Part shown: piece by piece, positions 22,401 through 63,538 of the stretch | Layout: every line of letters starts with the position of its first letter | Position numbering within the stretch: the stretch's first letter is position 1 | Origin: Malania oleifera | Taxonomy: Eukaryota > Streptophyta > Magnoliopsida > Santalales > Ximeniaceae | Length of the DNA: 64,000 bases | Assembly: GCF_029873635.1 (NCBI RefSeq) | Contig: NC_080422.1 | Coordinates: forward strand, 10,385,764 to 10,449,763 | Reading direction: 5' to 3' | Position numbers and translations under genes: made by a program | The notes under the pieces: generated by a model | The model's database searches: none | Told to the model about the DNA's origin: nothing | What the model saw: only the letters and a program-made list of their open reading frames with translations

Positions 22401-24406
22401 AATTTTCATTCTTCATAATATTAAATATAGAAAAAAAGCACACAATAAAAATTGATTCTAATTTTCATTTTTTTCCCGGTACAAAATCTTTGATTCAAAA
22501 TGGAGCTTACCCACAACCATTTGCAGGTCTTGAAATGTATGTAGCTACAAGCTAACATTGTGAGTATTCCACATTCTAAACATAAGCTAGCAAAAAAAAA
22601 TATTTTTAACTTTCAAATTTCATGTACAATAAAATTTAAAAATATCCATAAAATAAAATATATAAGAATTTTAAAAAAATAAAAATATTTTAAAAGTATT
22701 ACTATTTTTCAATTTTCATGTACAAAAAATTGTTCTTGTTGCTCTTAAATGTGAGTTCTGAAATATGATAATAATTATAATAGTGTATATTTTGTATATT
22801 AAAATAGTTTACATTTGTTTCATTCTTTTTTATTTTTTATTTTAATAATTTATTTTTATTCAAGGACAGGAAAGAGTATTTGTTAAACCAAGTTTTTGGT
22901 TTTGATTTTAAAATTATTAATCAAATAGGTGGTTTTTGAGTTTTAGTTTTAGCTTTTGGTTTTAAGTTTTTTTGTTTCTAGTTTTCATTTTCATAATTTT
23001 TACAATGATACCAAAAGATCCCTTAGCCGTGGAAAAGAATTTCATTTTTAGATTCCAAATAATTACAAAAAAAAAAAGAAAAATAAAAAATCTCATTTTT
23101 CACTTTTTTTAAAAATTACATAAAAAGCATAAATGTAGGAAATAATAAATTTTTTTCAATTTTATTATAAAAAGTTAAATTTAAAAATAAGGTGGCATTA
23201 TTTTAATTATTTAAAAATAAAAAAGACCATTTCTACAAGTAAATAGTGCTAATTTTTTTTTTTATTTTAAAATTTTATGCTAATTTCAAAACTTAAAAAT
23301 AAGCTAACTTTTTTTCATTTAAAAAAAAAAAATTATTTCTACAATTAAACAGACCCTTAATATACAAATTGTAGAAATTAACGAACCCTTCCAAAAGAGG
23401 AAATGAAATGAAAGAGGTTTGTCCACTAACCCACATGCTAACATATTTTTCTCCTCTTTCTTTTGATCAACAAAACAATAGAGGACAAAAGAAAGTATAC
23501 TTTTATCTTTCCCCTTCCCTCTTATAATTTTTCAAGAAATAAAATGGATTAAGATTTGAGAAGGAAATGCTGTGAAAAATTATAGGTTGAACATGTAAGA
23601 GTATATGTATATATATATATATATGATCAATTCTATTTCATCTCATAATTTCATTTTTATGGCAACAAGTAATAGTATCAAGGTGCTTGTAGTGACAAGG
23701 GAAATAGGCAAATAGCTGCAACCCCTAATGCTAGACTTTCTGAAACTAAATTAAATGAAATACATGTTAATGTAAACGTCTGCATGGATATATAATATAA
23801 TAGATATAAATATATATACCTGGGATGATCACTGTTCTTCACAGATTTCTGGCCATACTTCCTCCATTTGTAGCCATCGTCAAGAACATCATCATCACTC
23901 CTCGTGTGAAAGGCAATCCTGGGTGGAATGCCTTTCTTCGCCCTGCCACTTCTCAAACTTCTATCCTTATTACCAGCTGTTGCTGCAGTAGTAATACCTC
24001 CTCCTCCATTCATAACCTGACGATGATCATCTCCTAATTCCCCTTTATTATTATTATTATTATTATTACTATCCCCCGGTGCTGCTATTGGCGACACAGT
24101 CGGTGAGTCTGCTGGTGGCCTTTGGTCTCCATGCGAGGTGTTAATATTGGAGTAATTAATATTAGTTGCAGACAGGAGGCTAACCCAGTCAACCACCTCT
24201 CCTCCTGCATTAATGATTTGATCATCACCAGACTGGTCTTGCTGGGGTTGGTGCTGCAGAAGGGAAGACGAAGAAGAAGAGGATGAAGAAGGATGCATCA
24301 ATGGCGACTGAAACAAGTATGGAATATTAATGCATTGATGATGATGGTGATCATCAGCTGCAGCTGGGATTGAAGGTGGTGCTCGGAATAATATTTCTTC
24401 CTCCAT
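19488..24406 (-). CDS. WRKY transcription factor, group IIc (WRKY24/43/56-like), 254 aa
   Basis: Exon 1 is 24406-23820 and exon 2 is 19665-19488, with a GT-AG intron of 4154 bp between them. The intron splits an Arg codon (AG|G, residue 196) inside the WRKY domain, the conserved intron site of this family. The domain has WRKYGQK at residues 181-187 and a zinc finger C201-X4-C206-X23-H230-X-H232. PRIAFHTRS precedes it and the tail ends [11 protein letters not shown], as in the WRKY24/43/56 subgroup. The N-terminal half is low-complexity: His run, Ser9 run, Gln-rich and Asn7 runs. A basic patch (RSGRAKKG) may serve nuclear import. WRKY proteins bind W-boxes (TTGACY) in the nucleus, often in stress or development. 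The specific target process is not visible here. The two exons total 765 nt including TGA. Confidence 0.93.
20690..21790. repeat. Diverged tandem duplication, about 540 bp per unit
   Basis: Two head-to-tail copies, about 20690-21255 and 21256-21790. Shared blocks appear in the same order: TATTTGATTGAAA, GAATGAATYTACTTTT, TTTTACATGCTATTTACA, AATATATTTAAACATG, TTGATATTTTTCTTT, and a tail with AGTAACTTGTTTGGCTT-like text. Many indels and substitutions separate them, so the duplication is old. Confidence 0.8.
21153..23022. mobile_element. Candidate non-coding TIR element, 1.87 kb, TSD TTA
   Basis: The left end GGGACTGCTTGGTAT and the right end (inverted) GGGATCTTTTGGTAT match at 11 of 15 positions. 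Inward they remain similar for about 100 bp (AAAAATTATGG / AAAAATTATGA, then ACTAGAAA). TTA flanks both ends (21150-21152 and 23023-23025). There are no open frames of interest. Because the region is very AT-rich and overlaps the tandem duplication, the boundaries are tentative. Confidence 0.45.
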
Positions 24407-31149: not shown

Positions 31150-32234
31150 ATCCATTCTTCATTCGGTTCAAAGGGATTTGCTATCTTGACTACCCATATC
31201 GTTTTCCTATATTTGCCTCTGGCACCTCAAAATGAACAAGTATATCAAAGGTGCCATTTTCTTTCACAATATGAACATGCTTTGTTTTCATGTGAAATAA
31301 TTTTCTTATTAAACCTATTTTTACTTGATGAGGCATAAGAATGGCCATGAGATTTAAAAGCTGATGTTAAACCCTTTTTGAAAGAATTATTTCTTTTAAC
31401 TCCTAAGGGTTTATTTGAACTACTATTTTCACTTTTAGTCTTGGATATTATTCCAGATTGATCTTCCATTTTTCTCTCCAAGTAGGTAATTTTCAATATC
31501 TTCTCAATATTTTTCTTTTCTAGAATAACATGATATTCTTTTAACTCTATTAAATGTTTTGCCAACTTTTTATTTTCATTTTTCAAAAATGTTTTCTTCT
31601 TAGACATCTCAACTAGAATTTTATATATTTTAAATGAAGTTTTTTCTAGTTCTTCATACGAAGGCATGCTTTCATTATTGAATCCATCACATGATTCATC
31701 ATAAAGTTTATCACAATAATTATTACATGAATCATTGCATGAATTATCAACTAAATTATTACTAGAGACAACAGATGATTCAACACATTATATAACACAG
31801 GATTCAACACAGGAATCATCAAATGCATCATTAATTGAGGTAGATTGGAAAGCATATACCTTTTTATCGATTAAAGCAACTAGGTCATGATTTACCACTT
31901 CCAATCATTTGAGCTTAAAGCATTCAGGGTAGTGGCCTCCTTCTCTTTGGCTTCTCCATATTTCTTTTCTAGCTCTTCCAAGATTTCCCTTGTGCATTTA
32001 CATGCCATGATTTCAAGAAAAATATTAGAATCTAAAGCAAGATATAAAATATCCATGGCATTTTAATTTTCTTGCATCAAACAAATATCATGCTTATTTA
32101 ATTCATTTTCAAGTTTGGGAATTTTGAAATCATTAACAATTTTCATAGGTACAAAATTCCCTTGAACAATCACTCGCCAGACCCTCCAATCCATAGATTT
32201 TATAAAAACGCTCATCTTTTGTTTCTAATAGGTG
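31150..32234 (-). pseudogene. Copia (SIRE-like) gag, main part, split by a nested element
   Basis: Minus-strand translation shows a Copia gag (UBN2-type) body: IKSMDWRVWRVI, then NAMDILYLALDSN, then EILEELEKKYGEAKEKE. A lysine-rich coiled segment (31667-31245) and a degenerate zinc knuckle (CSYCERKWHL) follow. In-frame stops occur, including one where the family has Trp just after the junction and one before NAMDIL. The 5' part of this gag lies at 46492-46568, beyond the 14.25 kb Tat element. The reading frame resumes across that element once one copy of the 5-bp target duplication is removed. Confidence 0.8.
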
Positions 32235-32290
32235 TGTAGACACCCTATTTTTGCCCAGGCCAAATAAGATTATTATTATTATGATTACTA

Positions 32291-32339
<49 letters not shown>

Positions 32340-33274
32340 TTTACTGTTATTATTTTTATTGTTATTATTATTAATTCTATTATCATTATTATTAATATTA
32401 TCATTATTTTTAATTATTATTATTATTATTATTAGGGTTTGGGGAGAAACGTTTATAAGGTTGGGGGGGGGGGGGGGGTGGCGCTTTCAACATCTCTCTG
32501 AATCCTCTCCACACAGCAGCCCCCCTCTCCATCACTCTCTGTCTCTCTCCATTCTCCACTCTCTCTGCACACTAACACAACCCATCTCCCTCTCTCCCGT
32601 TTCACCTCATCTCTTCCATCTTGCTCCCTCATTCTCCATTGTCTTCACCTGGCTAGCAGCACATCCGACCACCACCCGACACCATCGTTTTCTTCCAGCC
32701 GATCTCCCCGAGCACCACTCTAGTTGCTGCGACACGCCCAGCATAGCCCCTCTGCGCCACAGACCAGCTTCAGGCTCCTTCTGCAACTGCGGGCCACCCG
32801 AGACTAGGACGGAACACCACGAGCAGCCCTTCTTCAGAAGCAACCCCTTTGCTGCTCTTCCTCCCTACCAGCTGTTGTCGGTGCCCTGCCGCCGCTGCCA
32901 GCTCTCTGCTGCCATGAGTCTCCCTCGCTGCTGCTGTCAAGGAATTCCTCTCGGCTGCTTCTTACCAGCAACAACACCCCACGTGCAGCCCCTATCTGCT
33001 GCAACTCTGAACCAGCCACCCATGGTTGCTGCCACCCACAGCCATCCTCCACAGCTGCTCCAGCCACCATCAACTTTCGGCCAGCCACCACATTGCTGCC
33101 AGATACACACCCGAAACTACGCTCACTGCTAGCTTTGGCAACTCACCACTTCACAGTCATCCTCCTCCCGTATCCGACCACCCCCTCGTAAGTTCCCTGT
33201 ATTTGTGTCCACACACGCACACACATGCACCCCCAGCAAACATGCACACACACACGCACCCCAGCAAGCATGCA

Positions 33275-33309
<35 letters not shown>

Positions 33310-34101
33310 AGCACACACATACTGACCTTCTTATTATTTTATTATTATTAAGTTTTATTTTAAATTGCAATACTTGTTTTAGGTACACACATGGTTATAT
33401 TTGATTGTAGTCATTATAAGATACTAATTGATTTATCATTATGGTTGCAGGATTTTTGTTGAGGATTATTTCAATGTTTAAAGGTTAAATTACATTAGTT
33501 GTACATATTAAATATTTGATATTTTGTGGTTTGTATTTTGATACTTGATCTTAATGTTTAGGTTTGTTGTTATTGTTGTATCATTGTGGAATTTTTAATA
33601 TTGTTACATTTGTTCTAAAAAATTTTAATCTCCAAGTTCATACTTTTGGTGTTGGCATTAATTGGTTCGTGTTTATAGTTTAGGATTTTCCCATCGCTTG
33701 TATATTATTATTAGTCATATTATTATTATGCTGATTGTATACCATTATTAGTAATATTACTATATTGATTAGATGTTATTATTAATATTATATTGATTAT
33801 ATTAGTATTATTATAACATCGATCTTATTAGTATTAGTATTCTGTTGCTTGCATATTATTATTAGTATTATCGTTATAGGTATTGTGTTAGTATTAAACT
33901 TATACCATTTGTACATGATTATTGGTAATATTAGTACATTAGTCGCATATGGTTATTATATGAATTGTATTAGTATTAGTATTATATTATTTGCACATTA
34001 TTATTGGTAATATTATTACATTGTTTGTGCATTATTATTAGAAATATAAGTATATTATTTGTACATTATTATTAATAATAATTGAAATATTATTGTAATT
34101 G

Positions 34102-34146
<45 letters not shown>

Positions 34147-34677
34147 TATTTTAAAGTATACGTATATTCGATTGTGTTATTAGCCTCTTATTATTTTAGT
34201 ATTATTATATTTTTGTTATTAAGTATTTTCAATTTTATCCCTATGATTGTGATAAAAAGGGTACAAGCTTTTTAAACTTCATGTACCTCAGTTCCGAGGG
34301 AATATATATAGTTTTGTATAATTTGTTTGTTTGTTTATTTATTTATTTATTTATTTTACATGTGTATTTGTAAATTACAAAAAGGGTGTAATTTTAAAGA
34401 TTTTTCTAAAATTTACTTAGGGATAATTTCATAATTAATTAGGTACCACTCGTAAGAATGGGCGCGTAGGGGGTGCTCGTACCTTCCCCTCGCGTAACCG
34501 AACACCTGATCCTAACTTTGGTAACGCAGACCCATTCGACCCTTAATTGGGTAGTAATTAAGTATTCTAATCATACTAAAAGGTTAGTGGTGACTTCAAT
34601 ATTTTTTTTTCCTGAAAATATAAAATAATTTTTATTTCATCGACCCCGAGGCACACGCGCTCCGGGACGTCGCGAAA
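32235..34677 (+). repeat. 5' LTR of the Tat-type element (2443 bp)
   Basis: Order: TGTAGACACC start, ATT repeats (32267-32440), TTAGGGTTTGGGG, TATA-like TTTATAAG (32452-32459), a run of 16 G (32463-32478), a GC-rich Pro/Ser-coding-like block to 33187 ending at GTAAGT (33188-33193), a CA repeat (33274-33306), an ATT-rich stretch, then the conserved U5-like end from about 34440 (GTAAGAATGGGCGCGTAGG, CACACGCGCTCCGGGACGT). Confidence 0.85.
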
Positions 34678-34680
34678 GCT

Positions 34681-34698
34681 TGGCGACTCTATTAGGGA
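34681..34698 (+). other. Primer-binding site (tRNA-Arg type)
   Basis: TGGCGACTCTATTAGGGA, three bases after the LTR end. It is a mutated version of TGGCGACTCCGCTGGGGA at 58626, which matches the reverse complement of the 3' end of plant tRNA-Arg (CCCCAGNGGAGTCGCCA). Confidence 0.75.
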
Positions 34699-34759
34699 CA
34701 TTAGAGAGTTGAGCCAGTAATTAATGGGAAGTTATCCTGAGTTTAAATTTAATAAATCT

Positions 34760-35400
34760 TTTAGTTGCTCCTCATTTTGTGAATATTAATTGTAAATATT
34801 TTATTTCTAAATTCTTTTAAATAAGCATAGTAATTGCAAATATTTTATTTCCAAATCTTTTTTAATTGCAAATATTTTCTTTCCAAATTTTTTTAGATAA
34901 GAATATTAATTGTAAATATTTTATTTCCAAAAATTTTTAAATAAGTATAATAATTGCAAATATTTTATTTCCAAATTTTTTAGATAAGCATATTAATTGC
35001 AAATATTTTCTTTCCAAATTTTTTAGATCAACAAATTTTAATTGCAAATATTTTGTTTCCAAATTTTTTATTGCAAATATTTTGTTTCCAAATTTTATTA
35101 ATTGCAAATATTTTGTTTTCAAATTTTTTAAATAAAGCATTCTATTGGTACATATTTTGTTTCTAAATTTTAACTGCAAATATTTTGTTTCCAAATTTTT
35201 AGAATAAAAGTGTTAATTGTAAATATCTTGTTTCCATATTTTGAATAGACATGTGATTGATTGTAAACATTTTATTTCCTTTGTTGTTTGAATAAACATG
35301 TGATTAATTGTAAATATTTTGATACCTTTGTTATTGAATAAACATGTGATTACTTGTGAATATCTTGTTTGAATAAACATGTAATAAAGGTAGGAGTAGA
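34760..35400 (+). repeat. Leader repeats, 30-50 bp units
   Basis: At least twelve diverged copies of TTGCAAATATTTTGTTTCCA(AA) with variable TTTTTTAAATAA spacers. A similar but shorter series follows the PBS of the second Tat element (58720-59040), so it is an ancestral feature of the 5' untranslated leader. Confidence 0.8.
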
Positions 35401-38400
35401 GGGATTAGACTAAAGTTATAAATTCACACACTTTCGTGCGCCTTCTACCCGGGCTTTACTTGCTAAGATTAGAAAGAAGTATAATATCGTTTGTCCCCAC
35501 GTGGCAGGGCTTGTGGGGACCCGTGAACCACTCCACTTAGTTTAAATTTTGTTCAAACCCCTTTTGGGCGAGGATGAAGGTTAGATTGAGAACCTTTTTT
35601 TCAATAGGGGTTAAAGCCTACCCACACATATACTTGTCTATAGTTTTCCCTAACTAGGATAGAGCCATGAAAAAACCCCATAAAATAGGGGTATCTACCT
35701 TGGGTTGGGATAAGATCCTCATCCTTGTCCATGTGACTTAATCCGTGTCTGTTGTATATATGTTTTGTGTTGTGTTATACATCTTGCATCCATTTTAGAC
35801 ATGCATACTACTTAGCCATCATTCGGGAAAAGCCCAATAATGAGACCATGACCCATCCTTTAAAAAATAAATAAATAAAACACTTGGATCGGTTCAATCC
35901 TTTTCAAATAACTCAGACCCAATTCTTTTTAAAAAAAAATTTAGGCCCGACCTTTTTCTAAACAAAAACCTGGCCTAGGCCTGATTTTGAAAAACGGTCA
36001 AACCCATATTTCAAAAGGGGGCTTCGACCCTATTATTCAAAAATCTAGGCCAACATTTTTAAAGTAATCCAAGCCCAACTCTCTTTAAACTCGGGTCTCG
36101 ACCTATCAGAAAATAGTTTGAAGCCCATATTTTGAAACATCCGAGGTCCAAGTGCACATCAAAGTTCACAAGCCTGCGTTGAACCAACCCAATAGGTTGA
36201 CTCGCCTGAGTTAATCTCAAACCCAGATCATAACCTAATCCTTCGTAGGATCTAAGGTATATGGACCATCATCAAGGAAAGAAATGGTTGAAGGAGGAAT
36301 TGAATTGAATCAGTGGTCCATCAATGGTCAACTTAATCATGAAATCTTTCATTAGTGGGATTTTTCCAGAATTCTGGCAATGTGTTTATCTAGGTAGCAT
36401 TGCATTCATGCACTTCATGCACTTCACGCATAGCCATGCACGATAGGCTGCATACATGTTTATATCACTATTTGCATGTATTTTTGTACTAGTTACACCT
36501 ATGCATAAACATCTATTGCATAACATAATCATGCATTTCATGCTCAATTCAATAACCATGTATGCATAGTCATCTCCAATAATCCGGTAATCACATCCCA
36601 ATTTTTTTGTAAAATTAGTGTGTTGAGGTGGCAAAGTTAAAGATTCGGGATTCTATCATTGAGCGGAATAAAAATGATCTCTCTATTTTAGGCGAAAGGT
36701 TAGAATCATGAGAACCCATTTCCAGATCACAGTTGAAATGTCACAAATGCCATTGGGTTGAATGATTGATTGGTATTCAACTTCATAAGTGAACTCACGT
36801 GATACAAAAATGATGTGTTTGATCACCTAAGGGTGACAACAAGAGGAATGCATCCATACTTTTCATTTAAATCATTTTGAAATTGAATGAAATAAGAATG
36901 TCTTTCAGTCTCATCTTATCCTATCCTCCTTGGATCATCACATTGTGCCAAGTTTAGCCTATTTTTGCTTGCATTTTGTGTAAGTGACATAGGAAATGGT
37001 TTTATCAGTACAAAGGACTTGGAGCCATTAGTTAGTTTTGGGAGTCTACTCAGTGCGGAAAAAAAGAAAAAGAAAAAGGAAAAGCCTCCAAGTCGAAGTT
37101 TAGTAAGGACCCCACTTCAAGATGTTGTCAAGGAGTCATATTGGGTGAGGATTTCAAAATGATGAAGAGTTATAGGCCGTATTATGCATTTGTTGGATGA
37201 AATCGATGAACAAAGTCTTTTGCCTTTGTTTTCTAAATTAGGATTGGTGTCTTAAGAGTATAATGATTATATTTTGATCAAATGAGGGGTGACTATCTTT
37301 GGTCAACCATTTAAACCAGTTTTTTTTTCTTAAAAGTCAGTTCACCAGAAATTTAACCTGGGTTTGGGTTCCCTAGCGTTTGGCAACTCATTTGAGACAA
37401 TAATCATTACCAAAAATATGACAGACCATTTTTCTGCTACCCAAAAGAAAGTCAAAAAAATAAAATAAAATAAAAAATCCCTTGCAAGCCCTTTTTGAGT
37501 TTGAACGATTCAATTCTTAATTAACTCATCAAAGGATCACACCCCACACTAGGGCAGTTTTAAAAAAATTAATCCCAAATGAAATTCAAATGAAAATGAA
37601 ATTAAGATTTTTTCATAAAAGGAAAAGCAAAAGTTGCAGTAAAAGAAGAAGAAGGAGATGAAAAAACGAAAAAAAAGAAAAAAATAAAGAGAAAGAAGAA
37701 GAAAGAAAAATAAGTGACATGATTTATATGTGATATTTGACTAGCGAATACTTGTGATGAGATTGATAAATTTTGAACCTTATTTAAATTTTTCTTTCTT
37801 TAACCCATACACTTAGCCTACATTACGGTCCAAATGAAAGTCCTGACCAGATTGGTATACGTTGTTGTCTCAAATGATTTTTTAGACTCAATGTTGAGTT
37901 TGAACTACGTAATGACCTAATCCTGCAAAGGTACGTAGGCAATTTGTTCAAATGACAAGTTCGGTCAATACTTTGCGAATACTGCACCACAAACTGGGGC
38001 ATAAATTTTTATTATGGGATGAGATTTTTGAGCCTTAGTTTCCTTGTTCTTGGTGAAACCTAAATCCTAAGCCTACATTTCGTTCCGTGTCTTAAAGTCC
38101 ACCCTGAGATTGTAATATTGATCAGTCTACTTAATAAGACACTAGTTATAATTCAAGACAGGGAGTTTGAAATAAGCTTGAAATAAGTAAGAAATAATCT
38201 TTAAGTGGTGATACAGTGGACGAGTTATGGTTAGGAGGCTGATATAAATTTTTAAAAAAAGAACATAAAAAAAAAAACAAAAACAAAGGGAAGGTTTGCC
38301 CATTGATATGATTCTTTAAGCCAGCAGCAAAGTTACATCAGTGTCAAAGTATTGGTAAAATTATTTCCTGTTAAATAAGCACAGAAAGTCCAGCAAAAAT

Positions 38401-39494
38401 ATGAAAGTTTGCGCATTCCATTCACATCTTTAATGAGATTGAGTTATCTAATTGCATATTTATTTATTTAAATTTCAAATTGATTCTAAAACATTAAGGA
38501 TGCAATCCAAAGAAAAACCTGGTGGAGAAAATGTAAGATGAGTAGGTTCAGCTACAAATGCATCTACTGGGGCAGGTGTCATGCCGAGTTTCTGAGGAAC
38601 ATATTCAGGGACATCTATGTTAGATAGGAATTCGAAAATATAGCCAAAAACAGAATTTATTTTGTTATGGGCTCATTGGGAAATTGGCGCATCATCATGT
38701 GTTATATATATATAAAAAAAATACCTTCTTACTCTTCCAAAGCTTGAAAAGAAGACGGATAGTCGAAGAGTTTTGGAATGACTAGTAGGCTTCTTGTAGA
38801 GAAGGTCCTCGTTGGGGACGTACGACGCAGGTAAAATCAGTTACGGAGTAACCTAGCTGGGGCAAATGTCATAACAAGTTTCACGCGAGCTGATTCAGAG
38901 ATTTGCTTATTTAAGAGGAATTCAACAACATAACAGTAAGCAGTTACAGATACATTTAACTTGGGCAAATTTCAAGTTGAGTTTTAGTGGAACCCATTAA
39001 AACACCTTCTTATCATATTGGAATATGAAAATAGGGCCAAAATCAGTTATAGATCCATTCAACTGGGGCAGATTTTGTGATTGAGTTTCATTTGAGTCAA
39101 GTCGACCACTTCTATTGAGAAAATAGAGTCAAGATCAGTTATAAATCCATTCAGTTGGGGTAGGTTTCGGGTTGAGTTTCAGGGGAACCAATTCAGAGAC
39201 AACATGGCCAAGATCAGAGATTGAGTTGTTGATTACAGGCGCATTGGAAAAACGAAGTTCATGCATCATCATGCATTGCACAAAAAAAAAAAAAAATGCA
39301 TACATATCCCCGTGTTCTGGTATCATATCAAACAACATGCATGCACCCTTGCATTCTAGCATCACCGATAACAAAATTCATGCATCATATAACATCATTT
39401 AGTCATACTCATCTTGCCGTACATCTCTTTTCATTATTCTCCAAGCAACCTTTGTTTCACTAATGTTTGAATACTGGGGCAAATGGCCCAAGTC
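35401..39494 (+). other. Non-coding internal region of the Tat-type element
   Basis: 35400-36650 parallels 59040-60560 of the second Tat element (for example CATGCATACTACTTAGCCA and the GACTCGCCTGAGTT / GACTAGCCTGGGTC blocks). 37200-39240 parallels 62340-63960. Between them, 36660-37170 has no counterpart and replaces gag-pol. In 38500-39240 there are diverged repeats around CATTCAACTGGGGCAGATTT and GGGTTGAGTTTCAGGGGAACC, about 100-150 bp apart. No protein domain is visible. Confidence 0.7.
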
Positions 39495-40480
39495 TAAGTC
39501 AAGTCATTCTCATGTGTTTCGGTGCTCAGGTTGTCAAAACCAGTGCAAGTCATTCTCTTGTACTTCAGCGCGCAGGTTCTCAAACCTGGTGCAAGTAATT
39601 ATTGTGTGCTTTGGTACTTGGGTTCTCAAACCCAGTGCAAGTCATTCTCGTGTACTTCGGTGCTCAGGTTCTCAAACCTAGTGCAAGTCATTATTCATGT
39701 GCTTCGGTGCTTGGGTTCTCACACCTAGTGCAAGTCATTCTCGTGTGCTTCGGCGCTCGGGTTCTCAAACCCAGTGCAAGTCATTCTCGTGTACTTCGGC
39801 ACTTAGGTTCTCAAACCTGGTGCAAGTCATTATTGTGTGCTTTGGTACTTGGGTTCTTAAACCTAGTGCAAGTCATTCTCATGTACTTTGGTACTTGGGT
39901 TCTCAAACCTAGTGCAAGTCATTCTCGTGTACTTCGACGCTCAGGTCCTCAAACCTGGTGCAAGTCAAATTTCATGTGCTTTGGTGCTTGGGTTCTCACA
40001 ACTAGTGTAACTCATTATCGTGTGCTTCGGTGCCTGAGTTCTCAAACCCAGTGCAAGTTATTCTCGTGTACTTCGGCGCTTAGGGTTCTCAAACCTGGTG
40101 CAAGTCATTATTGTGTGCTTTGGTGCTTGGGTTCTCAAACCCAGTGCAAGTCATTCTCATGTACTTCAGCGCTCAAGTTCTTAATCCTGCTGCAAGTCAT
40201 TATTCATGTACTTCGGCACTCAGGTTCTCAAACCTGGTGCAAGTCATTATTGTGTGCTTCGGCACTAGGGTTCTCAAACCCGGTGGAAGTCATTCTCATG
40301 TACTTCGGTGCTCGGGTTCTCACACCCGGTGCAAGTCATCATCATATACTTCGGCATTCAGGTTCTCAAACCTTGTGCAAGTCATCATCATATACTTCGG
40401 CACTCGGGTTCTTAAACCCTGTGCAAGTCATCACCATATACTTCGGCACTCGGTTTCTCAAACCCAGTGCAAGCCATATT
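39495..40480 (+). repeat. 46-bp tandem array, left part (21 units)
   Basis: The unit is typically CTTCGGCGCTCGGGTTCTCA followed by AACCCAGTGCAAGTCATTCTCGTGTA, with period 46-47. Each has a stem-loop core such as CAGGTT-CTCA-AACCTG, TGGGTT-CTCA-AACCCA or CGGGTT-CTCA-AACCCG. Units differ at several positions; the rightmost five carry CATCATCATATACTTCGGCA-like text that is also dominant in the right part of the array. Confidence 0.95.
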
Positions 40481-41205
40481 TGTAATGACTCGAAGAATGA
40501 TGACATTTAAATAATAAAAAGAGAGGAAAATGGAAATAGAAAAGAGGGCGGCAGCAGTTCGCGTTCGTCAATGACATGGAATTTTGGGCTCATCGACGAG
40601 GGTGTACTTCGTCGATAAGAAGATATTGAGAAGCTATTTTTTAAGCTCTAAATTTCGTTGACGAGGAATAGTATTCGTCGGTGAATTTCCTTCTTGACCT
40701 CGTCGATGAGGTGACATGGCTCGTTGACAAAGGCCAGTGTATAAATAGCCCTAAACGCGATTTTTCAGCTGATTTTCGCGCAAAAACCCTTTCCTCTCTA
40801 TCCTCTTTGGTTTTCATCCCTTCTTTCTAAGTTTCTAGGCCAGATTTATACCAGTTCGACGATTTGAAGCCACCACGACAATCCTGGGGAAGTTCTCTGC
40901 ATATCTGCTGAAGTGGATCGTTAGTGGGGCTAGTTTGAATTCATCCCTGATTCAAGATAAGACTATTTATTTAGAATTTGGTCTTCTCATAGTTAGAGGA
41001 AATGTTATTCACGGAAAAATACTGAAGTTTGGTTCTGGGAGTTGCCATTTTCAGGGTGTTGAACGAGGAACCGTACGAGAGCAGGACCAGTGAATTTTAG
41101 AGGGGATTTCTTTTCAATTATCAGGCAAGGGAATAAATTAAAACAATCATTTTCCATGCGAATTATTTTTATTTATCAGCAAATTAATTTTCAGGAAGCA
41201 TGTAT

Positions 41206-41236
<31 letters not shown>

Positions 41237-42585
41237 GAGTAGATTGGTAAAAATGCATATTTAGGAAAATACTGCTATTATGTTGAAATGTATACATATT
41301 ATGAAATGCCAGAAAATATGATTTTAGAATAGTATGGTTTTATTCAGCATTGTGTGGCATGAATATTATTTTATATGGAAAGTATTATGTTATGGCAATT
41401 TTACGAATAAGGTATGTTTTCAGAGATTATAAAATAATGTAGTATATTATGATTTTAAAATACATATTAAATGAATTATTTATTCAGAATGATAAGTATG
41501 AAATGTTCGGCACAAGGCTATCATTGATAGCCGGCGCAAGGTGTGTATTATGTATGATTTCAGCGCAAGGCCATATTTATGAATGTTTAGAGCAAGGCCG
41601 CGGATATAAAAGAATTCGGCGCAAGGCTGTATGTATGTATGTATGTTATTATAGAAAATGTTATCAATCTATTTATGTTAGACAAGTATATTATCATGTA
41701 TTATATGTTATCAGAACCCGGATGATAGGTCAGTTCAGTTTCAGGAGCACAGTATTGTAGCTATACAGATCAGATTACTATGTTCAGACTTGTACTAACC
41801 GCCCTTGCAAGTAGAGGGGGTGGGAGGTGGATAGTCGATGTAACTTTTAGTGTAGAGTTGTAGACGTCCACTTGGCTGTTCAGACCAGGGTGTGGCGGGC
41901 CCATCGTACTTACAGACATTTCTGACTCGGCAGTGGTCCGCCAGCCATTGTCGAGTCCCACCTTCGAGCTGCACAACCCATCATGGGGGGTAATACATGA
42001 CATCAACTAACTATACATCTTGGGTAAATTAGAGTATTATCAGTTATATCAGACATTTCATGATCATGGTGGCTTATTAGAAATTATAAGAGTATATGAT
42101 TATTCAGTATGTTGTGATGAATATTTCTAGCATATGAAATGTATTGTATATGTATAATAGTACTAAATATTCATGTTGCCACACAACTGTATTTAGTTTA
42201 TTTTTCCTTACTGAGAAGTGTCTCCCTCCAAACTTAAATAATTTTCAAGGAACCCAGAAAGATCGATGGATAGAGGCCGCCATTGAGATAGGTTGATACT
42301 ATCCCGCTAGGAGGGTAAGTTTTGATCTAGGGACAGGAAATTTATGTAGTGGGTTCCTAGATATGTATATATTTTTTATATTTTAGGAGATTGTATATGA
42401 ACACAGTATTTTGGAATGTAGTTGACTCTGGTATTATGTATTTTATGATTATGAGAATGTGATTTACATTTACTACTGCTTAGGTTTCCGTTGTGTATGA
42501 CAGGTGTGCGTCCTTGTTACCTACGGGTTCGGGTTGACTGTATTATGTGTGTTTAATTACATGGAAAGTTAAGTAGGTCGTTACA
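40481..42585 (+). mobile_element. Solo LTR, 2105 bp, TSD ATATT
   Basis: It starts TGTAATGACTCG and ends GGTCGTTACA, flanked by ATATT at 40476-40480 and 42586-42590. It contains a promoter-like TATAAATA at about 40741-40748, preceded by a cluster of GTCGACGAG-like motifs (40565-40730). A series GGCGCAAGG (41515-41640), an AT repeat (41212-41237) and the GACCAGGGTGTGGCGGGCCC block (about 41882) follow. It is homologous to the LTR fragment at 26369-27825. No internal sequence remains, so unequal LTR recombination is the likely origin. Confidence 0.92.
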
Positions 42586-42590
42586 ATATT

Positions 42591-43005
42591 CATGTGCTTC
42601 GACGCTCGGGTTATCAAACCCGGTGCAAGTCATTCTCATATACTTCGGCTCGAGTTCTCAAACCCAGTGCAAGCCATATTCATGTGCTTCGGCGCTCAGG
42701 TTATCAAACTCGGTGAAAGTCATTCTCATATACTTCGGCTCAGGTTCTCAAACCCAGTGCAAGTCATCATCATATACTTCGGCACTCGGGTTCTCAAACC
42801 CGGTGCAAGTCATCATCATATATTTTGGCACTCGGGTTCCCAAACCCGGTGCAAGTCATCATCATATACTTCGGCACTCGGGTTCTCAAACCCGGTGCAA
42901 GTCATCATCATATACCTCGGCATTTGGATTTCTCACACCCAGTGCAAGTTGTCATTATATACTTCGGCATGTGGGTTCTCAAACCTGATGCAAGTCATCC
43001 TCTTC
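42591..43005 (+). repeat. 46-bp tandem array, right part (9 units)
   Basis: This continues the array beyond the solo LTR. Most units here have the perfect stem CGGGTT-CTCA-AACCCG and CATCATCATATACTTCGGCA-like linkers. Positions 43006-43258 are a unique stretch leading to the purine tract before the 3' LTR. Confidence 0.95.
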
Positions 43006-43271
43006 AGTTCCTATTGACCATTTCAAAAATATCAGTTGGATTACCTCGTTCATTCAAGAAGTCATCTTCCAAACAATTACGCTAAACATTCCTAGATTGC
43101 CTTGTTATCCGTGATTGGTAGAAGCAAACAGTACCTGATTGAAAAGCCCTAGGCAATTGTGTAACCTGACTAAAATAGGTGTCTTTTGTCTTTATAAGCT
43201 TGTTGCCAAAGGTAACGTAGAAGAACTCTTACTGTTACCTTGAAGCAACAAAACTTATAAAGAGGGACAAT

Positions 43272-43305
43272 TATAGACACCCTATTTTTATTTGGGCCAA
43301 ATAAG

Positions 43306-43355
<50 letters not shown>

Positions 43356-46300
43356 TTTACTGTTATTATTTTTATTGTTATTATTATTATTATCATTATT
43401 ATTAATATTATCATTATTATTAAATATTATTATTATTATTATCATCATCATCATTATCATCATCATTAGGGTTTGGGGAGAAATGTTTAAAAGGGGCCCG
43501 CGGGGAGGGGGGGGGGGGGGGGGGGTGGTGGGGTGGGCAACACACAGAAACGCAGCCGTGGGGGTAGTAGGGGGAGGCAAAAAACCCTAAAAAAGAAGAA
43601 AAAAAAATTAAATGGCGATTTCATCTCTTTGAATCCTCTCCACAAACAGCAGCGCCCCAGCCGCCCCCACACCCACAAGCACCCCCAGTCACCATCAGCA
43701 AGCCCCTCCTCATCATCACTCTCTGTCTCTCTCCATTCTACTCTCTTCTCCATCACTCTCTGCTCTTCTCACTCCTCTCTTGCTCTCTGGGCCCACTAGC
43801 AAGGCTAACACAAAAACCCATCCCCTCCCGCTCTCCCTTTCACCCGTTTCACCTCATCTCTTCCATCTTGCTCCCTCATTCTCTCCATGTCTTCACCTGG
43901 TCTAGCAGCACATCCGACCACCACCACCCGACAAAAACCATGGTTTTCTTCCTTCTTTCTCCAGCCGATCGGCCCCGAAGCAACCCACTCTAGTTGCTGG
44001 CGACACACGCCAGCTAATAAGCCCCTCTTCGCCACAGACCAGCTCCATCAGGGTTCCTTCTGCAACAAACTGGCCGTTCTGCCACCCGGGACCTGGACAA
44101 AAAAAAACCCACAAGCAAGAGGAGAATATCCCTTCTCCTGAAGCACCCCCCTGCTCTTTTGCTACTCTCACCTTCCTCCCTCCCCCACTGTTGTCGGTGC
44201 CCTGCCGCCGCTGCTAGCCCTCTGCTTGCTGGCCGTAGTCTCTTTCCTCGCTATGAAACTAAAGCTAAACTCTACCTCCCTCGCTACTGCTGTCAAGGAA
44301 CTCCTCTCGGTTGCTTCTTACCAGCACCAACACCCCCCACGAGCATCGCCTTCTATTATGCTGTAACTCGGAACCAGCCACCCACAGTGTTGCCACCCAT
44401 CAAAACCATCCCTCCTCCACAGATGCTCCAGCAAACACATCAACTTTTTCGGTCGTTTCGGTCGTTCTGCCAGCCACCACATTGCTGTGTTGCCTGGCCA
44501 GATACACAAAAAACACCTAACCTCTCGAATACTACGCTCACTAGCTAGCTTTGGCAACTCACCACTCTCCTGTCATTCCTCCTCCGTATCCGAACCACCC
44601 TCCCTCGCCACGCTGTCATCCCTCCTCTCCCGTAGTCCACCACCCACCATACTCCTCCTCCGTATGGCCCGACCAACCATCCTATCCGCCTCCCGTATCC
44701 GACACCCCCTCGTAGTTCCTGTATTTGTGTCCACAAACACGCACACACACCTTGCACCCCCAGCAAACATGCACACACGACATCGCAAACCCCAGCAAGC
44801 ATGCATACACACACACACACACACTATAAGGCAATACCACACATCACAACAAGAACTATCCAACATTACTGATTCCAAGCACTCCTAACACACACCCTCA
44901 GCCTCCTCCTCACCATACCTGTGGCCTTTCGACTCCTTAAAGCTCCTAATACTTCCCTTCTTTTTTTACATTTCTTATTATTAAGTTTTTCCCCTTGCCC
45001 TCCTTAATTGTTTTCGGTTACTCACCCTCCAACTACCCATACTCCCCATGGTTCTCTATTGATTGTAGTCCATTATAAGATAATAATTGATTAATCATTA
45101 TGGTTCGCAGCAAGAGCAAAGCAGGATTTTTGTTGTTGAGGATTATTTCAATGTTAATAATTAATAAAAAGGTCAAATGTACATTAGTTTGTACATATTC
45201 AATATTTGATATTTTGTTTGTGGTTTGTATTTTGATACTTGATCTTCATGTTTAGGTTCTTGGTTGTTATTGTTGTACACAAATCAAATCGTGGAATTTT
45301 TAATATTTGTACATTTGTTCTAAAAAATTTTTTAATCTCCAAGTTCATATTTTTGGTGTTGCCATTAATTGATTCGGGTGTTTATAGTTTAAGTAGAGAA
45401 GTTTAGGATTTTCCCCATCATTTGTAGTATATTATTTCTTCATATTATTATTGCGACGCTGAGTGTATACCATTATTAATATATTACAAATATTGATATA
45501 GTGTTATTTTACTATAGTATATTGATTAAGTAGTATTTTATCATATCGATCTAACTTCGTATTAGATGATTTTGATTAGATTAGTATTAGTATCATATCG
45601 ATCTTATTTCAGTATTAGCATGCTATCTGTGAGCCTAAATTCGATTAGTATTATCGTTATAGGTTTGTGTTAGCCATTAAGTTATACCAGTGTGGACATG
45701 ATTATTGATCATGAGAATATTATGTAGAATCACTTAATGCGTAGTCGCATATGGGTTATTATATGGATTGGTATTAGTATTAGTATATATGATGTGCATC
45801 ATTATAATGGTCAATATTATCACATGTTTGTGCATTTTATTAGAAAAGTCTAAGGTATAATATTGTACTAGTATAATATATTAACATATTATTGTCATGG
45901 TCATTACGTACCCTCATCATCATCAGTATTATTAGTGATTCTTATTATTACTAATATTGCTTATTTAAAGATATCGTATATTGGATGTGTAATTAGCTTG
46001 TTATTATTTTAGAATTATTATATTTTTGTATTAAGTATTATTCGATTTTCCCTATGATTGCAATAAAAAGGGTACAGCTTTTTAAACATTTCACGTACAG
46101 TTCTGAGAGCAAAATATAATATAAACGACATTTTGTATAATTGTTGATTTATGGTTTTGTTTACTGTGTGTATCGTGTAAATTTACAAAATGGAGTAATT
46201 TTAAAAACTTTTTAAATTTACTTAGGGATAATTTCATAATTAATTAGGTATCGTTCGTAAGAACGGGCGCGTAGGAGGTGCTCGTACCTTCCCCTAGCGT

Positions 46301-46486
46301 AACCAAACTTCTCAATCCCAACTTTGGTAATGCAGACTCATTTTACCCTTAATTGGGTAGTAATTAAGTGTTCTAATCACACTAAAATGTTAGTGGCGAT
46401 TTCAATAATCCTGTTTTTTCCTGAAAATATAAAATGATTTTTATTTTGCCGACCCCGAGGCACACGCGCTATGGGACATCGCGACA
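43272..46486 (+). repeat. 3' LTR of the Tat-type element (3215 bp)
   Basis: It is preceded by a purine-rich tract AAAGAGGGA (43259-43267), the likely polypurine tract. It starts TATAGACACC and ends CATCGCGACA. Component order is as in the 5' LTR: ATT array, poly-G (about 43508-43525), GC-rich block, CA repeat, U5-like end. It is 770 bp longer than the 5' LTR, with very many small indels between 43500 and 46200, while the terminal 280 bp are nearly collinear with the 5' LTR. Confidence 0.85.
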
Positions 46487-46491
46487 AGGTG

Positions 46492-46606
46492 TAATCCACG
46501 CCACTAAACAATGGAGACTTGGTAAATGATTGACCCTCACAAAATAGGGATACACCAATGTGAGCCATTGGGATCTTTAACAAACACGTTTAAGCTTTTT
46601 GCAATG
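46492..46606 (-). pseudogene. Start of the Copia (SIRE-like) gag and leader
   Basis: A minus-strand frame from the Met at 46568 reads MAHIGVSLFCEGQSFTKSP and then an FSGVDY-type motif, the N-terminus typical of SIRE/Tork gag. It ends at the Tat insertion site and resumes at 32234. The short leader between it and the PBS is unusually compact. Confidence 0.75.
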
Positions 46607-55344: not shown

Positions 55345-55641
55345 TGTAGACACCTTATTTTTGTCCTAGCCAAATAAAACACTAGGTCCCCTCTTATTAT
55401 TATTATTGTTATTTTATTATTACTATTATTATTATTTTATCTATTCTTATTATTGTTATTATTATTATTTTCCTATATTATTAGTACTTTGCTATTATTT
55501 TTCTTGTATTTTTATTTTCATTATTATCATTATTTTTCATTTTCATTATTATTACTAGCACCTTTATTATCTTTATTTTCTTTTTACTTTACTATAATTA
55601 TTTTTTTTTATTTTTTCATTTATTTTATTGTTTGTAATATA

Positions 55642-55706
<65 letters not shown>

Positions 55707-56171
55707 TGTTTATTATTATTTATTATTATTATTTAATATTGTTATTATTATTATTATTATTGTTTTCCTATATTATTATTTATACTTTATTATTATTATT
55801 ATTAGTGCTTATTATTATTATTATTATTATCGTTATTATTATTTTTTTCATTAGTATTATTACTTATTTTTATTTCTATTTTATTATTATTATTTATTAT
55901 TTTCATTATTATTTTTAATTTTTATAATCATTATTATTAGTATTTTTTTTATTACTATTATTTTATTATTATTATTATTATTATTATTTTTCATTAGTAT
56001 TATTATTATTACTTTTATTTGTATTTCTATTTATATTGTTTATTATTATTTATTATTTAACATTATTTTTAATATTAGTATTTTTACCTTTATTATTACT
56101 ATTATTATTGTTATTATTATTTATTTATCTTTGTTATTACTATTATTATTATCTTATTATTATCATTTACC

Positions 56172-56221
<50 letters not shown>

Positions 56222-58622
56222 TCCTTATAACCATAATAGTAGTATATATTATTTCCAAAAAAGAAAAATACCAAAAACTGAAAAAGGAATTTTTTTTTAG
56301 GGTTTGTTTTTCAAATTTTTTTTATAAGAAGAGGGGGAAGGCGCACAGCGAAGAGAGGCCAAAAGAAGAAACCCTGCGCCCTCTCAAAGCTCAGCCGCAC
56401 ACAGCTGTTCCGGTCACAACACAGCCGGAAACCAAAACAAAAAAAAAAAAAAAACCTTACCCTTCTTTTCTCGCAGGCTACTTCTTCTTGTTCTTGTTGC
56501 CTCTTCGCCCCACTCCACCTCCGGCCATCCATCCTCTTCTCAGCAAACATCACCGCCGCCTTCGCCACAGTCACAACCGAGGCCACCATTCCAGCCCTCT
56601 GCTGCCAATCCGACAACCCCATCCTCTTCCCGGAGAGCACGACCCACTCCTCTCATCTCCATCTCACCGGCGAACCATCCTCCTCCTCTCCAGAACCTCC
56701 AGCAACAGCCGAGCACCATCCCAGTCTTCTTCGGCAACTCCTCCTCCAGCAACTCTCCGGCAACCACCCTGCCCCTCACGGCCACTCTACAAACAGCTGC
56801 AGACGACACACAGGCAGCAGCGAGCTCCGTGCGAAGCCCCCAGTCACGCTCTCTCTCCGGCAAGTCACCATCACTAGCCCGGCCATCCCTCACTCCCAGC
56901 TGCTGCACCACTCCGGCCAACTATCTTCTCCAGACTCCTGCAACCATTCCAGCCTCCACGGCTAGCGGCAACAACAGTCAGGAACGGCAAACAGCAACCA
57001 CCGGCAACATGCGCGAACTCCGGCCACCTGCTTCCTCTCCGTCAGCCCATGGTAAGTATCTGGTAAATCTCCTGCTGCTCCCGACCAGTCACTCGCGCAC
57101 ACACACACACACATACAGTATATAATTATATCTATATGTATATTGGTTTTATTTTAATTATTAAAGTCTAAGTTTTTTTTTCTCTTTTCCTTTTCTTTTA
57201 TTTGCATGTGTGTATATTAGTATAATATTTGCTGTAGCTTTTAATTAATATTTGCATATAGGCTATGTATATATATGTATATTAATTTGTTGTAATATTT
57301 AGTTAATATTTATATCCAGGCTGTGTATATATGTATATTAATATATAATTTGTTGTAATATTTAGGTAATATTTATATCTATGCTATGTATGTGTGCATA
57401 TTAATAAATTGTTTGTTGTAGCATTTAATTAATAGTTGTATCTATGTATATTATCTTGTGGTATGTTATTTATGTATTGTGTATTTAGGGTTTAAATTAT
57501 TACGTGTTGTATTTAGGGTTTTAATGGTATATTTAGGGTTTTGTTCATCATATGCTTTATTTAGGGTTCGATTGGTCTCTCATATTGTCATGATATATTA
57601 ATGGTAAGGTTTTAAAATTATTTCCATAATTATTGTCACGTGTTTTATTTGTTAACTCTAGGGTTTAAATTGCTTTCCATAATATTACTTGTGTAATAGT
57701 TTCCATTATTGTATATATTGCATGTGTATTATAGGGTTTAATTTGTTTCCATATTGTTATTGTACATTAATTGTAAGGCTCTAATTATTTCCAACCTATT
57801 ATTATTATTATACATATTGCCTAATATATTTAGGGTTTTTGCATATATTTGTTAAGATATATTATCATATTGTATAGTTATTAAAATTATGATATATATG
57901 TATTATTAGTCTAGTAGTATTATTATGTTATAATATTAATATTTACGTGTTATGATTAAAGTGGTATTATAATATTGTATTGGTATTTATGTGTTATTAA
58001 TATTATGAGATATATGTGTGTTATTATTATAGTAGTATTATTATTATAGGTAATGTATTATCATTATAATATATTAAGGGTATTATTTTCACATATTTCT
58101 GGAATTTTCAACTATATCCTATGTTTATATTTTGTATTGCGATATCCATTATTTCTAGTATTTTGGTATTATTTTAATAAGTATTTTTGCGTATATTTAT
58201 CCCTATGATCTAATTGCAAGGGGTATAAGCCTTCGGGCCTCACGTACCCTAAGCTCTGAGGGATTATATATATATATGTTATCTTTATTTATTTATTTAT
58301 TTTTCACATTTATTTATAAATTCATAAAATAGGAGTAATTTGAAGAATTATTAGATTAACTTAGGGATAATTTCAAATTAATTAGGTACCGTTCGTAAGA
58401 ACGGGCACGTAGGGGGTGCTCGTACCTTCCCCTCGCGTAACCGAACTTCCGACCCCAACTCTGGTAATGTAGACCGATTCTACCCCTAACGGGGTAGTGA
58501 TCATGTGTTCTAACCGCACTAAAGGTTAGTGGCGACTCCTACACCATGTTTTTCCATGAAAATATTAAATTGATTTTTAATTTCGCCGCCCGGGGCACAC
58601 GCGCTCCCGGGACGTCGCGACA
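55345..58622 (+). repeat. 5' LTR of the second Tat element (3278 bp)
   Basis: It starts TGTAGACACCTT and ends GACGTCGCGACA. It includes a very long ATT-rich region (55395-56221), TTTAGGGTTTG, a TATA-like TTTATAAG (56321-56328), a GC-rich block (56330-57051) ending at GTAAGT (57052-57057), a CA repeat (57096-57113), seven TTTAGGGTTT-like motifs (57484-57840) and the conserved end from about 58380. Confidence 0.88.
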
Positions 58623-58625
58623 GCT

Positions 58626-58643
58626 TGGCGACTCCGCTGGGGA
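58626..58643 (+). other. Primer-binding site, tRNA-Arg type
   Basis: TGGCGACTCCGCTGGGGA begins three bases after the LTR. It is complementary to the 3' end of plant tRNA-Arg including CCA, as known for Ogre/Tat elements. Confidence 0.82.
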
Positions 58644-60604
58644 CATTAGAGAGTCGAGCCATTAATTAATTAGAAATTATCCTAAGTTCAAATTTAATAA
58701 AACTTTTAATTACTCCTTATTTTGTGAATATTGTAATTTGTAAATAATCTTGATTAATTGAAAATATTTTACTTCCATAATTTGTAAATAACTAAAATTA
58801 GTTAAAAATATTTTGTTTCCTAATTTTGTGAATATTAATTGTAGATATATTGTTTCCAAATATTTTGAATAGAGCACATTAATTGTAAGATATTTTGAAT
58901 AAGTAGATATTTTGTATATTAATCGTAAATATTTTGTTTCCTTATTCTTTTGTTTCCAAATTTTTTGTGAATAAACATATTAATTGCATATATTGTGAAT
59001 ATATATATATTAATGGTAGGTATCTTGTTCCCATATTGTTTATAGCATGTGAATAAATGTGGGGATAGTGGGATTAAATTAAAATTTGAATTCACACACT
59101 TTCACGCTCTATACCCGAGCTTTCCTTACTAGGACTAGATAGGAGTGTAATAGCGTCAGTCCCTTCGTGGCAGAGCTTGATGGGACCCGCGAACCACTCC
59201 ACTCAGTACGGGTTTTATCCGGACCCCAATGGGGGAGGATGAAATTCCAAACTGGGAACCTTTTATCAATAGGGTTAGAGCCTACCCACACATACTTGTC
59301 TATAATCTTCTCTAACTAGGATAGAGCCATGAAGAACCCTATATATACATACCTACCCTGGGTTGGGACATCCTTATCCCCATACCGTCTATTATATATA
59401 TGTTGTGAGATACCTTGTATTATACCATGCATGCCGCATCCATTTTAGACTTACATACTACTTAGCCAGTATTTTGAAAAAGCCCAATAATGAGACCATG
59501 GCACATCCTTTCAAAAATGAAGCACTTGGCCCAAGCATTTTAAAATATGGGTCGGCCCAACCCTTTTCAAATAACTCGGGCCCAATTCTTTAAAAGCAAA
59601 CTTGGGCCCGACCTTTTTCTAAGCAAAAACTTGGCCCATGCCTTATTCTCAAAAATGGTCAAACCCAGATTTCAAAAGAGGACTTCAACCCCATTGCCTA
59701 AAAATTTGGGCCAATATTTTTTCAAGTAATCCAAGCCCAATTCCTTTTCAACTAGGGCCTCAGCCCATCATGAAATATGGGTCGACCCAATCCTTTTCAA
59801 ATAAATCGGGCCCAATTCTTTAAAAACAAACATAGGACCAACATTTTCCTAAGTGAAAACTTGGCCCAGACATGATCTCCAAAGAGGGTCAAACCCAGAT
59901 TTCCAAAAATGGGCTTCAGCCCTATCACCTAAAAATTCGGGCCAACATTTTTTTGAGTAATCCAAGCCCAATTCCTTTTCAACTAGGACCTTAACCCATC
60001 ATGAAATAGTTCGAAGCCCATATTTTAAAATACTTGAGGCCCAAGTGCACACTAAAGTCCATAAGTCCACATTGAATGAATCCGATGGGTTGACTAGCCT
60101 GGGTCAACCCCAACCTCAGAACATAATTTGACCCTTTATAGAATCTGAGGTACATGGACCATTATCAAGGAAATGAATGGGTAAGGGAGAAATTGAATTG
60201 AAATCGTGACCCATCAATGGTCATGTTAATCTTGACCCGTTTCATTAGTGGGATTTTTTCTAAAATTCTAGCTAAGTAGTAATTTAGGACATCATATTCA
60301 TGCATTTCATTTCATACATAGTCATGCACGATAGGCTGCATGCACGTTTATATCATTATTTGTATGTATAAGTGCACTAGTTGCATCCATGCATAAACAC
60401 CCATTGCATAACCTTATTGTGCATTCCATGCTCAATTTCATTACTATACATGCATAGTCATCTCCACTGAGTCAGTAATCATATCCCAATTTCCTGTAAA
60501 ACCAGTGTGCCAAGGTGGTGAAATCGAGATTTGAAATTCTAAAAGCAGGCGAAACAGAATGGTTTCTGCACATCCTTTTAAGTTATTGACAAAGGGTTAG
60601 ACTC

Positions 60605-63504: not shown

Positions 63505-63538
<34 letters not shown>

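What the first reader, a model, noticed from the sequence alone, without database searches (positions are those of the whole stretch)
39495..43005. 46-bp tandem array of stem-loop units with matched stem changes
Seen directly: 30 units in two blocks (21 + 9), period 46-47. Each carries an inverted repeat around a CTCA loop. At least three different stems are paired correctly (CAGGTT/AACCTG, TGGGTT/AACCCA, CGGGTT/AACCCG), that is, changes on one arm are often met on the other. Several units break the pattern. Established: the 3' untranslated region of Tat/Ogre elements is known to be hypervariable and a source of satellite repeats. Inference: the hairpins may be maintained at the RNA or DNA level, or the palindrome may promote array growth.
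Basis: partly seen in the sequence, partly recalled or inferred. Interest (0 to 1): 0.75.

Follow-up and report, generated by a model that had tools for sequence, protein, structure and literature searches.

The report
Old minisatellite inside a gene-less retrotransposon
A plant-type retrotransposon that has lost its genes carries, just before its 3' end, a 46-base tandem repeat whose unit can fold into a good hairpin, but the matching stem changes look like inherited repeat subtypes at mutable CpG sites and not like a maintained structure, so the find is largely ordinary.

Summary
The array is real: 30 units of about 46 bp (21+9), 39500-43002, one array split by a 2.1-kb solo LTR (40481-42585, ATATT duplicated). 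It lies about 270 bp before the 3' LTR of a gene-less LTR retrotransposon (32235-46486, AGGTG duplicated, LTR K2P 0.215). The covariation does not show maintenance: the three stems are CG/TG/CA states of one CpG per arm. In 808 core units of 38 arrays only the two CpG pairs covary in the pairing direction; the excess falls from z 7.8 to 1.5 and from 3.8 to -0.5 when linked subtype markers are held constant (power falls too). The other eight scored pairs show none, and stem columns vary as much as the rest. Related gag-bearing elements carry a related 66-bp array at the same site, with a weaker hairpin, and four arrays switch from 66/68 to 46 bp. This is the known hypervariable 3' tandem-repeat region of Tat (Ogre/Retand) elements. 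A coding relative has gag-protease and RT-RH-second RNase H-INT; the window element has no genes, so its clade is inferred.

The parts
32235..46486 (+). Host LTR retrotransposon without coding genes
   Evidence: LTR pair, AGGTG at 32230-32234 and 46487-46491; longest stop-to-stop frame before the array 91 codons
32235..34677 (+). 5' LTR
   Evidence: BLAST pieces against the 3' LTR, 68.6-81.5% identity; end by alignment with the 3' LTR end
34680..34700 (+). Probable primer binding site (TTGGCGACTC...)
   Evidence: Position right after the 5' LTR; the tRNA match is recalled, not tested
39500..40480 (+). 46-bp array, block 1: 21 units plus the first 11 bases of the split unit
40481..42585 (.). 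Solo LTR of another element inserted in the array
   Evidence: TGTAATGACT...GTCGTTACA with ATATT at 40476-40480 and 42586-42590
42586..43002 (+). 46-bp array, block 2: rest of the split unit, 8 units, and a 12-base partial unit
43003..43271 (+). Segment between array and 3' LTR, ending in a purine-rich tract
   Evidence: Similar DNA follows 29 of 30 other arrays; tract read
43272..46486 (+). 3' LTR (begins TA instead of TG)

Best explanation
This is the 3' hypervariable tandem-repeat region of an old, gene-less LTR retrotransposon related to Tat (Ogre/Retand) elements. Shown: the array sits at a fixed site before the 3' LTR in copy after copy; copy number, unit length (46 against 66/68 bp) and unit subtype vary between copies; differences between units are mostly transitions; each stem arm has one CpG position found mainly as CG, TG or CA. 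Inferred: the array grows and shrinks by slippage, unequal exchange or template switching during DNA replication or reverse transcription, often in blocks of several units, so that a few unit subtypes, some with complementary CpG states, are copied together. That copying plus CpG decay gives the look of compensated stems. The hairpin is most likely an accident of the founding unit without a role of its own.
For: Fixed site: similar pre-LTR DNA follows 29 of 30 other arrays within about 20 bases and reaches the LTR start in 27 of 30; the upstream match ends exactly at 39499 in 14 of 30. Ten elements chosen by hand from the 40 hits to the pre-LTR DNA (none beside an array listed before) carry 46-bp units, 10 of 10. 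Unit turnover: 66-bp arrays at the same site in 29 of 30 loci of the gag family, L060 only at 70%; 66/68-bp units run into 46-bp units in L075, L084, L085, L086 (4 of 12 loci). Subtypes: three-unit period; the strongest column associations are outside the stem. CpG: arm 1 is CG, TG or CA in 736 of 808 core units, arm 2 in 659 of 808; 3807 of 4736 differences are transitions. Association of 28-41 falls from z 7.8 to 1.5 and of 27-42 from 3.8 to -0.5 as linked markers are held constant. Stem heterozygosity 0.163 and 0.178, rest 0.149.
Against: Pairs 28-41 and 27-42 do covary in the pairing direction in 808 core units (z 8.0 and 3.7); CA/TG is 55 against 19.6 expected and CG/TG 21 against 52.0. 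With six markers held constant 28-41 is still reached by only 5 of 400 shuffles, with twelve by 28 of 400, while the units usable fall from 806 to 337, so part of the loss is power. Arm swaps in the 726 units outside the window are less stable in 200 of 200 trials, by about 0.3 kcal/mol, and by 0.2 on the other strand. The homologous segment of the 66-bp unit keeps an 8-bp hairpin although its sequence has changed, stable beyond 964 of 1000 shuffles. The loop is the least variable part (0.092).
Confidence: 0.83

Rival explanations
1. The hairpin is kept by selection as an RNA element of the retrotransposon transcript (packaging, dimerisation, export or 3' processing).
For: Units fold better than shuffles; a weaker hairpin is kept in the 66-bp unit with a paired change at one position; 28-41 and 27-42 covary; the + strand folds more stably than the - strand (-9.38 against -7.61).
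Against: The swap effect is also present on the - strand. Eight of ten scored stem pairs show no pairing excess; 29-40 is 0.794 against 0.794. Only 111 of 808 units have all six inner pairs. Stems are as variable as the rest. CG/TG, a G-U pair that RNA would tolerate, is depleted. No Rfam match in 32200-46600.
Confidence: 0.06
2. DNA template switching between the arms (quasi-palindrome correction) keeps the arms matched without selection.
For: Association is present on both strands and favours full complementarity over G-U. The mechanism is published for RNA genes (PMC8794818, abstract).
Against: Correction should act on the whole stem, but 29-40, 30-39 and 25-43 show no pairing excess in core units. 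Double changes between sister units are within the background: 28-41 odds ratio 1.83 (7 of 42 background pairs as high) and 1.39 (32 of 72). With edge units kept, 25-43 (2.87 and 3.75) and 23-45 (3.02, same array) did exceed the background 95% value; 25-43 is 0.63 and 0.89 once edges are dropped.
Confidence: 0.07
3. The array codes for a repeated peptide (302-aa frame, 39602-40510).
For: Long open + frames also occur in other arrays, for example 392 of 392 codons in L026 and 351 of 351 in L008.
Against: 46 is not a multiple of three, so each unit is read in three frames and the unit merely lacks stops; in 8 of 30 other arrays the longest + frame is under 100 codons. The only Pfam hit is far below its cut-off (16.2 against 35 bits). 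A published survey excludes such frames for this reason (PMC6317226, passages).
Confidence: 0.02

Closest known systems
3' hypervariable tandem repeats of Tat-lineage LTR retrotransposons (Ogre, Retand)
   Same: Tandem arrays between coding region and 3' LTR, varying in unit and copy number between families (PMC7004042, Discussion section and passages; PMC11963269, abstract and sections 11 part 1 and 12). Macas et al. 2009 is known to me only through these citations.
   Different: The window element has no genes; its LTRs (2.4 and 3.2 kb) exceed the 315-1194 bp given for Retand clusters. The words hairpin, inverted repeat and secondary structure do not occur in those two papers, palindrom only in reference titles of one. 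No array outside an element was found here, in capped searches.
Gmr9/GmOgre minisatellites of soybean
   Same: Minisatellites between coding region and LTR of an Ogre-type element (PMC3305785, abstract).
   Different: Five interleaved families there; one family with 46- and 66/68-bp forms here. No mention of hairpin or inverted repeat in that text. Sequences not compared.
TRAYC-like satellites of Silene latifolia
   Same: An imperfect palindrome is what otherwise different repeat families share (PMC3212565, passages).
   Different: 165- and 200-bp monomers with a 73-bp palindrome; sequences not compared.

Membership tests
LTR retrotransposon | Two LTRs and a target-site duplication | tested here: met
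   32235-34677 and 43272-46486, AGGTG on both sides
LTR retrotransposon | Own gag and pol genes (autonomous) | tested here: not met
   No frame above 91 codons between 5' LTR and array
Tat lineage (Ogre/Retand) | Second RNase H (aRH) between RH and INT | tested here: inconclusive
   Absent from the gene-less window element; present as RVT_3 between RNase H and integrase in coding relative L087 (criterion from PMC6317226 passages). The link is gag of the second element, 41% identical to L087 gag
Tat lineage (Ogre/Retand) | Tandem repeats between coding region and 3' LTR | tested here: met
Retand | Antisense TRP28 frame before the 3' LTR | not tested
   No antisense frame above 91 codons before the array, but no search for the domain was made; feature from PMC11963269
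Ogre | gag-protease and RT-INT frames separated by an intron-like gap | tested here: not met
   In L087 the two frames overlap (958-4260 and 4205-7849, stop to stop); not testable in the window element
Satellite DNA | Long arrays independent of the element | tested here: inconclusive
   60 other places grouped by hand from two searches that scored 40 candidates each, of 793 and 782; the longest, about 88 units (L076), is still followed by pre-LTR DNA
Structured RNA element | Compensatory changes beyond ancestry | tested here: not met
   residual excess told in the Against line

The most novel reading that the evidence does not exclude
Fold-back template switching at this palindrome both rewrites the CpG-bearing part of the stem from one arm to the other (excess of CA/TG, depletion of CG/TG) and changes unit length (a 46-bp-type unit to 66 bp by a partial internal duplication of about 21 bp), so the hairpin would drive the hypervariability of the 3' region of these elements.
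Probability: 0.07. Interest if true: 0.55.

Novelty: new member of a known kind. Interest (0 to 1): 0.2.

Why it matters
It shows how apparent compensatory changes can arise in a tandem repeat without a selected structure: one CpG position per palindrome arm with three common states, copied in multi-unit blocks. Tests of covariation in satellite hairpins should hold unit subtype constant and drop edge units. The family, with 46-bp, 66-bp and composite arrays at one fixed site, is also a handy natural series for studying how 3' arrays of Tat-type elements change unit length.

Tried and rejected
Maintained hairpin: tested by arm swaps, offset partners, mutual information of all column pairs, sister units and stratified shuffles; not supported. 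An early signal at 25-43 and 30-39 (25-43 also in 46) vanished when the first two and last three units of each array were dropped. Searches used minus-strand loci that had not been turned; their figures for other arrays are void and were redone; the window table stands. A first hand pattern found only 20 of the 30 window units and was replaced by wrap-around alignment. Coding reading rejected. No Rfam match in 32200-46600 at gathering score, no tRNA in the window by ARAGORN with the bacterial code. Pfam on the gag frames of the second element gave nothing above cut-off; their identity rests on L087. Paper searches: seven papers were opened in part (outlines, passages or sections); none of the passages seen describes a hairpin in such arrays, but most listed papers were not opened.

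Full report
What is there. TRF finds period 46 at 39500-40477 (21.2 copies) and 42590-42999 (9.0 copies), and in block 1 a higher-scoring 139-bp period of three units. Wrap-around alignment gives 30 full or nearly full units. The 2.1 kb between the blocks begins TGTAATGACT, ends GTCGTTACA and has ATATT on both sides, so a solo LTR landed in one array. The array lies in an LTR retrotransposon, 32235-46486, with AGGTG on both outer sides; the part of the LTRs aligned differs by K2P 0.215 over 1271 sites, about 8 to 15 million years with substitution rates that I recall. No frame above 91 codons is left between the 5' LTR and the array.

The hairpin. A unit can fold as a 10-bp stem with one bulged base and a CTCA loop; which base is bulged depends on position 42 (G pairs with C27, A pairs with T26). 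The segment has a mean energy of -9.50 kcal/mol in the window, mean z -2.46 against dinucleotide shuffles; z is below -2 in 18 of 30 window units and 90 of 150 sampled units of other arrays. The palindrome is more than chance.

The covariation in the window. The stems CAGGTT, TGGGTT and CGGGTT differ at one CpG position: CA, TG, CG. The other arm shows the same three states. At both positions 13 of 30 units are matched. Swapped arms are as stable or more in 7 of 200 trials, and the next unit's arm pairs as well as the own. The structure counter gives 18 of 500 shuffles for pairing and 3 of 500 for the covariation score; 15 of the 16 double changes are at the two CpG pairs. RNAalifold predicts no consensus structure.

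More arrays. Thirty further arrays, turned to one strand, give 796 rows with the window. In the 726 units outside the window the own arms are more stable than swapped arms by about 0.3 kcal/mol on the + strand and 0.2 on the - strand, in 200 of 200 trials each. Among 1035 column pairs ranked by mutual information the ten stem pairs stand at 73, 81, 111, 314, 440, 550, 620, 645, 704 and 857; at equal column distance, 30-39 and 25-43 exceeded all others (36 and 27) and 28-41 all but 3 of 32. Then 12 loci were added, the first two and last three units of each array dropped, and arrays with fewer than eight such units left out (5 of 43): 38 arrays, 808 units. Now 30-39 and 25-43 show no excess; only 28-41 (WC 0.713 against 0.617) and 27-42 (0.418 against 0.366) do, both CpG positions. 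Stem pairs as a group do not exceed 893 other pairs (p = 0.23) and stem columns vary as much as the rest, 0.163 and 0.178 against 0.149; the loop is lowest, 0.092.

Subtypes. Shuffling inside strata of array and linked marker columns lowers z of 28-41 from 7.8 to 5.4, 4.6, 4.7, 2.1 and 1.5, and of 27-42 from 3.8 to 2.6, 2.0, 2.1, 0.0 and -0.5; usable units fall from 806 to 337 and 336, so power falls too. At the last two steps 5 and 28 of 400 shuffles reach the observed 28-41 value. Double changes between nearest sister units are within the background in core units, though with edge units kept 25-43, and 23-45 within arrays, were above it. I read this as inherited subtypes plus transition-rich decay (3807 of 4736 differences), with a small unexplained remainder at 28-41.

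Family context. Similar pre-LTR DNA follows 29 of 30 other arrays, and 10 of 10 elements picked from the hits to that DNA have 46-bp units. A second, related element starts near 55345 and has two overlapping frames with gag (60590-61231, 61198-62022). In its family 18 of 143 scored matches show an uninterrupted 478-codon frame. Before the 3' LTR, L042, L043 and L044 carry a 66-bp array and no 46-bp unit; so do 29 of 30 loci of a further search, with 3.6 to 22 copies in the 1.5 kb examined, one of them (L060) only at 70% and with 4 units of 46 bp; the thirtieth, L069, has 4 units by alignment. L045 is the same element as L044. The 66-bp unit resembles the 46-bp unit with about 21 further bases like its own first part. 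Four of 12 loci (L075, L084, L085, L086) have 66/68-bp units on the 5' side and 46-bp units on the 3' side.

Does the 66-bp unit fold? In 92-nt stretches no better than shuffles (mean z +0.74 and +0.16 on the two strands), against -2.1 and -2.6 for the 46-bp blocks; neighbouring 38-bp and 25/49-bp arrays of the same element lie at -1.55/-2.92 and -1.08/-1.58, non-repeat DNA at -0.38/+0.19. But its segment homologous to the stem still forms an 8-bp hairpin of -6.5 kcal/mol, reached by 36 of 1000 shuffles, which speaks somewhat for retention. In 376 units its stem columns are not more conserved than the rest (0.026 against 0.025).

Classification. L087, a coding relative, has a gag-protease frame and an overlapping RT-RNase H-RVT_3-integrase frame; gag of the second element is 41% identical to it. 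A second RNase H between RH and INT marks Ogre and Retand (PMC6317226, passages). The window element has no genes, so Tat kinship is inferred through its LTR and internal similarity to the second element. Tandem repeats at this site, and satellites growing from them, are known (PMC7004042, PMC11963269). Template switching as a source of matched stems is known too (PMC8794818, abstract).

Verdict. Array and hairpin are real; the covariation is not upheld as evidence of a maintained structure; this is a further family of a known kind.

Noticed in passing
window 55345-64000, L042: A second, related LTR element with a gag frame continues past the window end; its family has many similar copies and a 66-bp array in the place of the 46-bp one.
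   Followed up: partly
L075, L084, L085, L086: Composite arrays: 66/68-bp units on the 5' side run into 46-bp units on the 3' side.
   Followed up: partly
L076:1263-5311: Longest array seen, about 88 units with 139- and 231-bp higher-order periods.
   Followed up: no
7 of 30 loci: L002, L003, L004, L007, L008, L026, L034: A subfamily in which the DNA after the array matches the window only from 43105 on, not from 43003.
   Followed up: no
window 39602-40510: 302-aa open frame through the array, a result of the near absence of stops in the unit; similar in many other arrays.
   Followed up: yes
window 1341-4076 and 23678-24406 (minus): Likely host genes: a 911-aa frame with WD40 repeats and a 242-aa frame with a partial WRKY domain.
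   Followed up: no
window 20718-21261 and 21265-21796: A direct repeat of about 0.55 kb, 80% identical, side by side.
   Followed up: no
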